Source: Kangiella geojedonensis (GTDB lineage Bacteria > Pseudomonadota > Gammaproteobacteria > Enterobacterales > Kangiellaceae). From it: 64,000 nt of DNA. The translations under genes were made by a program, and so were the position numbers. The stretch spans positions 1,736,001-1,800,000 of the forward strand of contig NZ_CP010975.1 of the NCBI RefSeq assembly GCF_000981765.1, given 5' to 3'. Positions 55,072-56,927 of this stretch are shown here, piece after piece. Under the pieces are notes generated by a model. That model was not told the DNA's origin, did no database searches, and worked only from the letters and a program-made list of their open reading frames with translations. Position 1 is the stretch's first letter, and each line of letters opens with the position of its first letter.

Positions 55072-55104
55072 AAAAAAAAGGTAGTGGCAACAATACCACT
55101 ACCT
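55072..55104 (-). terminator. Intrinsic terminator after the sigma/LolA-like operon
   Basis: AGGTAGTGG (55079-55087) pairs perfectly with CCACTACCT (55096-55104) over eight bases. Read on the minus strand the hairpin is followed by TTTTTTTT. It lies 38 bases after the stop of the 55142-55966 gene. It is also close after the convergent yjdM gene. Confidence 0.88.
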
Positions 55105-55141
55105 CGACTTACGAGTTGATGTCGATGAACATCATTAGTGA

Positions 55142-55966
55142 TTAATTCAACTCGAATAAGTTATCATCAAAGCGCTGGTTATATTCAACATCAGCTTTCA
55201 TCTCAAACCCAACACTGCCGTCATCAAAAGTCTGGCTGACATTGATCTTTACTGGTAACTGGCTTTTAGGGTCAACCCAAACTCGAGTTTCGATACCAGT
55301 CTCCTCAAGTAAGAACCCTGTTAACTCAACGCCTGAAAAGGTTTGTGTACCCATCGGCTTAGCCTTCTCTGGATCGACTTCCAAGATCAGCTTGCGCCAA
55401 TACAAAGGGTCTTCTTGCGCACTGTGAGAAGTGTCGCCGGCATCAAAACTAAAAGGTACCGTTTGATTAGTATCCGACAACTTCATAACGCCTTTACCTT
55501 GACTAACATCCATGATGTTTACGAATGTTGGTTGGTCTTTATGTTCTAAAGCATAGCTTTCCATCCGTAGCTGCCCAGGCTCTCGGTAATACACCCTGAT
55601 ATCCATCAAGTGCTGGCCTGACGTTGTCATGGTTGCGCTGTAGAAAAAGTTGCGGGCCTTCTTAAAGTTTTCCACCATACTGGCGAAAGACGTTTGCGGT
55701 GACGCAGAGAATATAAAAATGGCTAAAGCAAAACTGGCAGCAGCGCCCATAGAGCCTGCAAGCTTGTAACCAGAAAAATTCATTGTGTCCTTCCACCAAG
55801 CAGATAGTTTCTGAAAAACACCTAACTCTTCACTATGCTTCTCTGCTTCTATCGCAACCGCTTTTAATAAACGGTTTTGTGCTCGTTCAATATCCTCTGA
55901 CAAAGGCTCTTGGGTTTTAAGACTATCAACCGCGTTGTTCAAGGTGTGATCAGCTGCGTGCTTCAT
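55142..55966 (-). CDS. Membrane anti-sigma-like protein with LolA-fold periplasmic domain
   Basis: The 274-residue protein has a soluble N-terminal region (1-70), a transmembrane helix (about 67-88, LAGSMGAAASFALAIFIFS) and a periplasmic domain from about 93 with the LolA/LppX-like layout: SMVENFKKARNFFYSATM, GQLRMESYALEHKDQPTFV and VWVDPKSQLPVKINVSQTF. It overlaps the ECF sigma gene by 17 bases. Such membrane partners normally hold the sigma factor; the N-terminal part lacks the zinc HxxxCxxC motif, so the contact mode is unknown. Confidence 0.75.
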   Translation of the reverse strand: MKHAADHTLNNAVDSLKTQEPLSEDIERAQNRLLKAVAIEAEKHSEELGVFQKLSAWWKDTMNFSGYKLAGSMGAAASFALAIFIFSASPQTSFASMVENFKKARNFFYSATMTTSGQHLMDIRVYYREPGQLRMESYALEHKDQPTFVNIMDVSQGKGVMKLSDTNQTVPFSFDAGDTSHSAQEDPLYWRKLILEVDPEKAKPMGTQTFSGVELTGFLLEETGIETRVWVDPKSQLPVKINVSQTFDDGSVGFEMKADVEYNQRFDDNLFELN

Positions 55967-56510
55967 ACTTCTCTCCTGTATTCTGACTGTGACTAAGTAA
56001 GCGGGCCAATTTTTGCCGAGTTCTATTAAGAATGATGCCGACGTTACCGGACGTTAATGCTAGGTGTTGTGCAATATCGTCGTAAGACAACTCCTCCACA
56101 AAACGTAAAACAAAAACCTTTGCCTCTTGTTCCGTGACCTTTGTCAGAGCATCTCGAAGTTGCTGAATATCCTGCGTTAAAGCAAACTGCTTTTCAGGCG
56201 TTGGCTCTGGGTTGCTATGGATAGATACAACCGTTTCAGCACCATCATCAGTAATACTTTGCTCCGACAAACGGTGTTTCTTTCTTAATAAATCAAGGCT
56301 GGCAGAAGTTGCCATAGTCGTCAGATAGGCAGCCCAATTATTCACTTTGTCGAACGCCTTAGGTGTCTTTTTAAATAGCTTCATGTAAATATCTTGAGTG
56401 ATATCTTCAGCATGATGACTATCCCCTACTATGCGATAAGCTGTAGCGAACACCTGTCGTCCATATTGATTTGCTAGTTCAGCAATAAGCTGCTTCTGTT
56501 TCTTCTTCAA
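55950..56510 (-). CDS. ECF-type RNA polymerase sigma factor
   Basis: The 186-residue protein has region 2 (YGRQVFATAYRIVGDSHHAEDITQDIYMKLFKK, about 15-47) and region 4 (FVLRFVEELSYDDIAQHLALTSGNVGIILNRTRQKLARLL, about 133-172) with a linker. No extracytoplasmic sensor domain is fused. It is coupled to a membrane partner with a LolA-like periplasmic domain, so it probably answers envelope or lipid stress. The ATG at 56510 has only a weak site (GGGGAAG). Confidence 0.93.
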   Translation of the reverse strand: MKKKQKQLIAELANQYGRQVFATAYRIVGDSHHAEDITQDIYMKLFKKTPKAFDKVNNWAAYLTTMATSASLDLLRKKHRLSEQSITDDGAETVVSIHSNPEPTPEKQFALTQDIQQLRDALTKVTEQEAKVFVLRFVEELSYDDIAQHLALTSGNVGIILNRTRQKLARLLSHSQNTGEKYEARS

Positions 56511-56663
56511 CGTTCTTCCCCGTTATATGACCTCACTACTATAGACGAAAACAAACCAAAGTTTCTTACATAAAACTTTACTGAATTTTAATATCGATAA
56601 GTTTTAGTCACCCCAGAGTTTCTGATAGGATAAATAAAGCTCTGACTAATACAGGAAGAAAAA

Positions 56664-56927
56664 ATGAAGTATCTTACTCTAATTCTTACCAGCTTATTGG
56701 CCATCGTGTTTACTGGTTGTTCTAGTGATTCAGACCGAACACACAAAGCCGACCGTGAGCCTATTAGGGGCAGTCTGGAATGGTGTCATATGTATTATGA
56801 CCCAGCTAGCTCAGGTGAGCGCAAGCCCAATGCCGCTAAGTACTGTAAGTCAGCTTTAGAAAAAAAAGATGATCGCGAACGAAATGAATCCATTCTAAAT
56901 GATGGTGCTAAAGTAGAGATCAAATAA
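56664..56927 (+). CDS. Small lipoprotein, DUF3012-like
   Basis: The 87-residue protein has a lipobox VFTGC (Cys19). The mature part contains GSLEWCHMYYDP then AKYCKSALEKK, which resembles the DUF3012 pattern of W-C and A-C spacing. AGGAAG lies seven bases before the ATG. It is transcribed divergently from the ECF sigma gene, across a spacer that holds an AAAGTTT/AAACTTT inverted repeat (56558-56579). Function unknown. Confidence 0.6.
   Translation: MKYLTLILTSLLAIVFTGCSSDSDRTHKADREPIRGSLEWCHMYYDPASSGERKPNAAKYCKSALEKKDDRERNESILNDGAKVEIK

What the first reader, a model, noticed from the sequence alone, without database searches (positions are those of the whole stretch)
55142..56510. ECF sigma factor with a LolA-fold membrane partner
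The partner has no zinc anti-sigma motif but has a membrane helix and a periplasmic domain like lipoprotein carriers. This suggests direct sensing of lipoproteins or lipids in the periplasm, with signal passed to a sigma factor. The operon ends with a strong terminator, and an AAAGTTT/AAACTTT inverted repeat lies in the divergent upstream spacer (56558-56579).
Basis: inference. Interest (0 to 1): 0.5.

Follow-up and report, generated by a model that had tools for sequence, protein, structure and literature searches.

The report
Sigma factor with lipid-carrier-fold membrane partner
A marine bacterium pairs a gene-switching protein with a membrane protein whose outer half is predicted to fold like carriers of fatty molecules, so the pair probably senses something in the cell envelope and switches on its own genes.

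Summary
Window 55950-56510(-) is an ECF sigma factor. The overlapping gene 55142-55966(-) encodes a single-span membrane protein without a zinc motif. Its periplasmic part is predicted, in the best of five models, as a LolA fold; matching solved folds include LolA, LprG and RseB. The two genes are neighbours in 10 of the 11 genomes, of 40 searched in this bacterial family, that hold the partner, so an anti-sigma role is likely but not shown.

Two corrections. The AAAGTTT/AAACTTT repeat is in 1 of 10 upstream regions, so it is no conserved operator. What is conserved is an ECF-type promoter, TGTAAGA-N16-CGTC, 59-62 bases before the sigma start: exact in 9 of 10, near-exact in the tenth. It marks the operon in 6 of 6 Kangiella genomes with the pair; one-mismatch sites do not exceed control. 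This implies autoregulation and shows no wider regulon.

Lipoprotein or lipid sensing is untested; LolA folds also bind proteins. One lead: an invariant Phe-Ala in a signal-peptidase-like motif between membrane helix and LolA domain, recalling RsiV. Verdict: a new variant of membrane anti-sigma factor, moderately interesting.

The parts
55950..56510 (-). ECF sigma factor, 186 aa, TTG start
   Evidence: Pfam Sigma70_r2/Sigma70_r4_2; NCBIfam sigma70-ECF; relatives 31-93% identical beside the partner in nine other loci
55142..55966 (-). membrane partner, 274 aa, probable anti-sigma factor; overlaps the sigma gene by 17 nt
   Evidence: family alignment of 10; neighbour of the sigma gene in 10 of 11 family genomes with a match
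55769..55966 (-). cytoplasmic N-terminal region (residues 1-66), three predicted helices; presumed sigma-binding domain
   Evidence: AF2 helices 3-18, 23-43, 48-64 at mean pLDDT 63.9, pTM 0.29; N-terminal profile scores the membrane partner of a related ECF (L085) above 387 of 387 control ORF starts; no Pfam anti-sigma match
55706..55762 (-). single transmembrane span (residues 69-87)
   Evidence: Kyte-Doolittle 19-residue maximum 1.82; comparable span in 10 of 10 members
55682..55690 (-). S-F-A (residues 93-95), signal-peptidase-like motif between the span and the LolA domain; F and A invariant in 10 of 10
   Evidence: invariant F94, A95; S/A/T, F, A in 10 of 10; but 3 of 6 other anti-sigma proteins also have some [AST]xA nearby
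55145..55705 (-). periplasmic LolA-fold domain (residues 88-274), predicted
   Evidence: AF2 model, 11 strands, helices at 90-103 and 189-196; VIA-align Z 13.2 (4mxt), 12.7 (LprG), 10.7 (RseB 3m4w); Foldseek E 1.6e-9 to LolA
56544..56570 (-). ECF-type promoter TGTAAGA-N16-CGTC, presumed autoregulated
   Evidence: exact in 9 of 10 loci, 59-62 nt before the sigma start; TGTAAGG-N15-CGTC at 58 nt in the tenth; 0 of 20000 mononucleotide shuffles; alignment of nine
56515..56521 (-). ribosome-binding-site-like GGGGAAG before the TTG start
   Evidence: read from the sequence; GGRGA conserved in the nine aligned upstream regions
56558..56579 (.).
55078..55105 (-). intrinsic terminator of the operon

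Best explanation
A two-gene, self-controlled envelope-sensing unit. The partner is most likely a single-pass anti-sigma factor: its N-terminal helices hold the ECF sigma factor at the inner membrane, and its periplasmic LolA-fold domain is the sensor. When the LolA domain takes up a lipophilic or protein ligand, the partner is probably cut just outside the membrane and then within it (regulated proteolysis), freeing the sigma factor, which transcribes its own operon from TGTAAGA-N16-CGTC and so amplifies and then resets the response. Shown here: gene pair, conservation in part of the bacterial family, single span, conserved promoter sequence, terminator. Predicted: LolA fold. Inferred: sigma binding, inhibition, ligand, proteolysis, and that this sigma reads the promoter. 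It works like RseA and RseB merged in one chain, but is a member of neither family.
For: Sigma and partner are neighbours in 10 of 11 family genomes with a partner match, and the sigma is the more conserved (93-31% against 83-19% identity to the window's copy). No zinc motif, one span. Predicted LolA fold; weak DUF2092 and RseB sequence matches. The N-terminal region resembles that of the membrane protein beside the best sigma hit outside the family (L085), whose C-terminal part differs: a shared sigma-side module with exchangeable sensor parts. Conserved ECF-type promoter at the operon. Stable locus: about 24-27 kb from rseA in 5 of 5 genus genomes where both lie on one contig.
Against: No binding or activity data. 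The N-terminal model is weak (pLDDT 63.9, pTM 0.29; under 50 in the full-length model; three of the five full-length models average under 55). No anti-sigma family is hit, and the N-terminus does not resemble the RseA or zinc-type anti-sigma N-termini of the same genome. The L085 match rests on one sequence, both start at Met, the lead over the next control is modest (20.7 against 16.6), and L085 has no such promoter upstream even with 3 substitutions allowed. No further convincing promoter copies were found, so no target gene points to the signal.
Confidence: 0.7

Rival explanations
1. Signal-peptidase-gated version: the span plus S/A/T-F-A is a retained signal-peptide-like cleavage site, hidden by the first helix of the LolA domain. 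Ligand binding in the LolA cavity exposes it, signal peptidase makes the first cut, and a site-2 protease finishes, as RsiV does with lysozyme.
For: F94 and A95 are invariant in 10 of 10, with S/A/T before them in 10 of 10, although identity to the window protein falls to 19%; the predicted helix 90-103 spans the site (residues 81-90 are of low confidence). In RsiV the cut is between residues 66 and 67 and amphipathic helices after it protect it (PMC6066255, passages read); RsiP is cut by signal peptidase too (PMC8844934, passages read). RseP of Kangiella koreensis, a site-2 protease, has been structurally characterised (PMC10202637, passages read); whether this genome has it was not searched.
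Against: The -2 Phe is also invariant, which signal peptidase does not require (recalled), so F-A may be a structural start of helix 1. Some [AST]xA near the span occurs in 3 of 6 other anti-sigma proteins. No cleavage predictor was available.
Confidence: 0.2
2. RseB-like shield in cis: the LolA domain masks a first-cut site for a DegS/HtrA-type protease and is lifted by LPS or another lipid; the partner does in one chain what RseA and RseB do in two.
For: RseB is the only PDB sequence match of the profile (E 0.22-0.23, not significant) and a structural match (Z 10.7). MucB binds lipid A, and RseB/MucB hold back cleavage of RseA/MucA (PMC7400510; PMC8103513; passages read). A trypsin-PDZ protease gene lies in the rpoE region of this genome.
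Against: The matched RseB range ends at residue 205; RseB's separate C-terminal domain is absent. Between the span and the LolA domain there are only a few residues, leaving little room for a masked site there.
Confidence: 0.25
3. The LolA domain senses a protein or peptide, or has an enzymatic or carrier role, rather than sensing lipid; the partner still controls sigma.
For: LolA folds bind proteins (GerS-CwlD, PMC8496864) or catalyse (VioE, PMC6363788) as well as lipids (passages read). VioE (Z 11.4) and ependymin-related proteins are among the structural matches.
Against: Many of the top structural matches are lipid or lipoprotein carriers, though a shared fold shows no function.
Confidence: 0.25
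4. The partner is not an anti-sigma factor; it is a co-transcribed envelope protein, or a positive regulator that sigma needs.
For: No recognised anti-sigma domain.
Against: Conserved adjacency, single span with a helical cytoplasmic region, and the L085 resemblance.
Confidence: 0.12

Closest known systems
RseA-RseB (E. coli) / MucA-MucB (P. aeruginosa) with sigma-E / AlgU
   Same: ECF sigma, membrane partner, LolA-fold periplasmic domain linked to sigma control
   Different: There the LolA fold sits on a separate soluble protein with an extra C-terminal domain; here it is fused to the membrane protein, without that domain and without RseA_N. The same genome has its own rpoE-rseA-rseC elsewhere.
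DUF2092 (PF09865), described as LolA-related (PMC4520260, passages read)
   Same: weak sequence match in 7 of 10 members, 2 of 10 over the curated cut-off; predicted same fold
   Different: The window protein itself has no hit. Of 28 DUF2092 places in 398 phylum genomes, none had an ECF gene within about 1.5 kb.
RsiV / sigma-V (Bacillus)
   Same: single-span anti-sigma factor with an extracytoplasmic sensor next to a signal-peptidase site
   Different: RsiV's sensor binds lysozyme; no sequence or fold relation was tested; cleavage is not shown here
LolA / LprG / LppX lipid carriers
   Same: predicted 11-strand half-barrel fold
   Different: from general knowledge: no N-terminal cytoplasmic domain, not paired with a sigma factor

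Membership tests
ECF sigma factors | sigma-70 regions 2 and 4 only, about 20 kDa | tested here: met
   Pfam and NCBIfam hits; 186 aa
Membrane-bound anti-sigma factors | co-encoded with its ECF gene, one transmembrane span, cytoplasmic N-terminus | tested here: met
   (orientation inferred from hydropathy and the LolA domain, not measured)
Membrane-bound anti-sigma factors | N-terminal domain binds and inhibits the cognate sigma | not testable with these tools
   needs binding and reporter assays
Membrane-bound anti-sigma factors | recognisable class I/II/III anti-sigma domain | tested here: inconclusive
   no Pfam or NCBIfam anti-sigma hit; weak helical model; of eight tested partners only L085 stands out
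Zinc anti-sigma (ZAS) factors | HxxxCxxC motif | tested here: not met
   0 of 10 members
RseA | RseA_N domain (PF03872) | tested here: not met
   no hit in the partner; the genome's one RseA_N match is at 1815 kb
RseB/MucB | MucB_RseB domain (PF03888) | tested here: not met
   no hit in the partner or in the genome
RseB/MucB | LolA-fold domain followed by a separate C-terminal domain | tested here: not met
   aligned RseB range ends at residues 204-205, where the partner ends
LolA-fold superfamily | 11-strand half barrel with helices at the open face | tested here: met
   predicted model and structural matches; a prediction, not a solved structure
DUF2092 | score over Pfam cut-off 21.2 bits | tested here: not met
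   window protein no hit; 2 of 9 relatives are over it
Signal-peptidase-cut anti-sigma factors (RsiV, RsiP) | cleavage at a signal-peptidase site after the span | tested here: inconclusive
   S/A/T-F-A conserved in 10 of 10, but [AST]xA also near the span in 3 of 6 other anti-sigma proteins; cleavage not testable here

The most novel reading that the evidence does not exclude
A one-protein lipid-responsive anti-sigma factor in which the LolA cavity gates a signal-peptidase cut: filling the cavity moves the first helix off a conserved S/A/T-F-A site, signal peptidase and RseP destroy the partner, and sigma is released to drive only its own operon, a self-contained lipid-triggered switch in Gram-negatives.
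Probability: 0.13. Interest if true: 0.68.

Novelty: new variant of a known kind. Interest (0 to 1): 0.42.

Why it matters
If the partner is an anti-sigma factor, a LolA-fold sensor fused directly to it would let the open question of how lipophilic envelope signals reach a sigma factor (RseB/MucB) be studied in one chain with one promoter as readout. The absence of rseB from the rpoE operon in nearly all genomes of this bacterial family makes the comparison sharper. The lack of any convincing second promoter copy raises the question of what the sigma controls.

Tried and rejected
Inverted repeat as operator: rejected, 1 of 10 loci.

Replacement of lost RseB: considered because rseB is missing from most of the family, but rejected as a general account. 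RseA_N is in 40 of 40 family genomes. MucB_RseB is found in 3 of 40, over its cut-off in 1 of 40; the two weak matches lie beside a transporter-like ORF and look LolA-like by eye (no family search made). The partner is in only 11 of 40, and the one genome with rseB (G015) also has the pair. So there is no complementary pattern.

Wider regulon: exact motif with spacer 15-17 in 14 genus genomes, six with the pair and eight without: 15 sites, of which 6 are the operon sites (6 of 6). The other 9 were read and none looked like a conserved promoter. One mismatch, fixed spacer, 6 genomes: 7-23 sites per genome against 15-48 for the reversed pattern, 112 rows including the 6 operon sites. 24 of the other 106 were read: 21 inside ORFs of 70 aa or more, 3 outside, none convincing. 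Six more stretches were fetched but not analysed; the rest were not read.

Relatives further away: the profile in 197 order genomes hits 4, all of the genus, G000 among them; in 369 class genomes it hits G000 and one DUF2092 protein (L022; secreted by eye) with no ECF ORF found beside it. A profile of ten sequences may miss diverged members. Genome contigs: 7 loci, in Kangiella, Aliikangiella or an unnamed gammaproteobacterium. Plasmids: none. Sigma profile in 369 class genomes: four hits outside the family at E <= 1e-20; their neighbours, read by eye, are not LolA-like. The sigma profile was not run over the family itself, so a sigma without partner there is not excluded.

N-terminal comparison: an earlier control pool still held family loci; they were dropped before the count of 387. 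The controls are six-frame ORFs of 150 aa or more, not all of them real genes.

NCBIfam hits of single family members at E 0.011 and 0.032 (a beta-lactamase and a diacylglycerol kinase model) and Pfam NUDIX_2 and Fib_alpha (E 0.14, 0.22) were taken as chance.

Literature: searches for ECF/anti-sigma with LolA, RseB, DUF2092, Kangiella found no report of an ECF paired with a LolA-fold membrane protein; passages of three listed papers that name LolA or match the letters were seen and are unrelated. The library lacks most subscription papers, and the 2021 ECF re-classification paper (recalled, not seen) is not held, so novelty of the architecture is not established.

LolA Arg43 equivalence: not decided, no residue-level superposition was available.

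Full report
What is there. The window lies in a 2.5-Mb Kangiella-like genome (G000:C1:1736001-1800000; closest named relatives of the partner are from Kangiella). On the minus strand a TTG-started ECF sigma gene (55950-56510) overlaps by 17 nt a 274-aa gene (55142-55966). The sigma factor has regions 2 and 4 and little else. The genome has ten Sigma70_r2 matches.

The partner. Alone it has no Pfam, NCBIfam or PDB match. It and nine intact relatives from the same bacterial family were aligned (identity to the window protein 83 to 19%). One more match, in G038, is a remnant in one frame with an IS110 transposase and was left out. Seven of ten members show DUF2092 at E up to 1, two over its cut-off. 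The profile's only PDB matches are RseB entries at E 0.22-0.23, not significant alone. AlphaFold2 with this alignment gives block pLDDT means of 69-93 from residue 91 on and leaves 1-87 under 50; the five models average 69.2, 65.2, 54.0, 53.3 and 44.3, and only the best was used. Foldseek's best matches are LolA structures (E 1.6e-9). VIA-align gives Z 13.2 over 165 residues at 3.4 A (4mxt, LolA-type), 12.7 LprG, 12.2 LppX, 10.7 RseB, at 5-13% identity in the rows shown. All ten members have one hydrophobic span and no HxxxCxxC.

Is it an anti-sigma factor? A sigma gene is next to the partner in 10 of 11 family genomes with a match; 40 were searched. In the genus, the locus lies about 24-27 kb from rseA in 5 of 5 genomes where both are on one contig, so it seems inherited at one place and lost from many: 6 of 20 genus genomes have the partner. 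The N-terminal region is predicted as three helices at low confidence (mean pLDDT 63.9, pTM 0.29). Its profile was compared with N-termini of eight proteins encoded beside other ECF genes. L085, beside the best sigma hit outside the family, scored 19.8, above all 40 of its shuffles. L039 scored 9.0, also above all 40 of its own shuffles, but within the range of chance scores in the whole test (up to 10.6). The other six, RseA and zinc types included, did not stand out. Against the starts of 387 ORFs from other loci, family loci dropped, L085 ranked first (20.7, next 16.6). L085's C-terminal half is different, and L085 has no copy of the promoter upstream even with 3 substitutions allowed. This suggests a shared sigma-side module with exchangeable sensor parts; it is suggestive, not proof.

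The control region. Aligning nine upstream regions showed TGTAAGA and CGTC standing out. Scanning ten, TGTAAGA-N16-CGTC is exact in nine at 59-62 nt before the sigma start (the TTG aligned with the window's), and the tenth (L012, sigma 31% identical) has TGTAAGG-N15-CGTC at 58 nt; 0 of 20000 mononucleotide-shuffled regions had the exact motif. The motif occurs at the operon in 6 of 6 genus genomes with the pair; 9 further sites in 14 genomes, read one by one, do not look like promoters of a common gene. One-mismatch sites are fewer than for the reversed pattern in 6 of 6 genomes; 24 of 106 of them were read. The simplest reading is an autoregulated promoter read by this sigma; that the sigma reads it is inferred from position and conservation. 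The terminator is strong.

Distribution and novelty. Profile searches of 197 order and 369 class genomes found no second case outside the family, with limited sensitivity. DUF2092 proteins elsewhere have no ECF gene within about 1.5 kb (0 of 28; the search did find the RpoE gene in L045, fetched with them). Paper searches found no report of such a pair, but the library is partial and the main ECF classification is not held.

Mechanism. Membrane anti-sigma factors act by titration and are most often removed by proteolysis (PMC8103513, section 7, part 1 of 2 read). MucB senses lipid A with its LolA-like N-terminal domain and holds back cleavage of MucA (PMC7400510 passages); RseB does the like for RseA (PMC4598750 passages). 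The partner has this fold but not RseB's C-terminal domain, and tethers it directly to the membrane helix. The S/A/T-F-A motif at residues 93-95 invites comparison with RsiV, cut between residues 66 and 67 by signal peptidase and guarded by helices after the site (PMC6066255 passages). Against that, -2 Phe is invariant too and may be structural, and 3 of 6 other anti-sigma proteins have some such motif nearby. The ligand is unknown: lipids are the natural guess from the fold, but GerS (PMC8496864) and VioE (PMC6363788) show other uses (passages read).

Side finding. The rpoE region here reads rpoE-rseA-rseC-trypsin/PDZ protease without rseB. In eight of eight family regions read there is no ORF of 100 aa or more between rseA and rseC (own, listed from 110 aa; seven; RseC confirmed by Pfam in three). 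MucB_RseB passes its cut-off in 1 of 40 family genomes while RseA_N is in 40 of 40.

Verdict. A real, conserved ECF unit with a predicted LolA-fold membrane partner; a new variant of a known kind; signal and mechanism open. Interest 0.42.

Noticed in passing
L037 (G000:C1:1812000-1817500), and L077-L083: The rpoE-rseA-rseC operon of this bacterial family lacks rseB: no ORF of about 100 aa or more between rseA and rseC in 8 of 8 regions read, MucB_RseB over cut-off in 1 of 40 genomes, RseA_N in 40 of 40.
   Followed up: partly
L009:1492-2985(-) (genome G038): An IS110-type transposase N-terminal part runs in frame into the LolA domain of the partner; no sigma gene is seen among the ORFs listed around it, so the pair seems broken there.
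   Followed up: partly
window 55950-56510: The sigma gene starts with TTG after GGGGAAG, and a TTG is at the aligned place in 9 of 9 upstream regions of the alignment; perhaps it keeps sigma levels low.
   Followed up: no
L085:1462-2480 (genome G495): An ECF gene related to this one, followed by a short membrane protein with no Pfam match whose N-terminus resembles that of the partner.
   Followed up: partly
window 56664-56927(+): Divergent small lipoprotein-like gene with no significant family match; a similar ORF lies in the same place in L005 but not in all loci.
   Followed up: no
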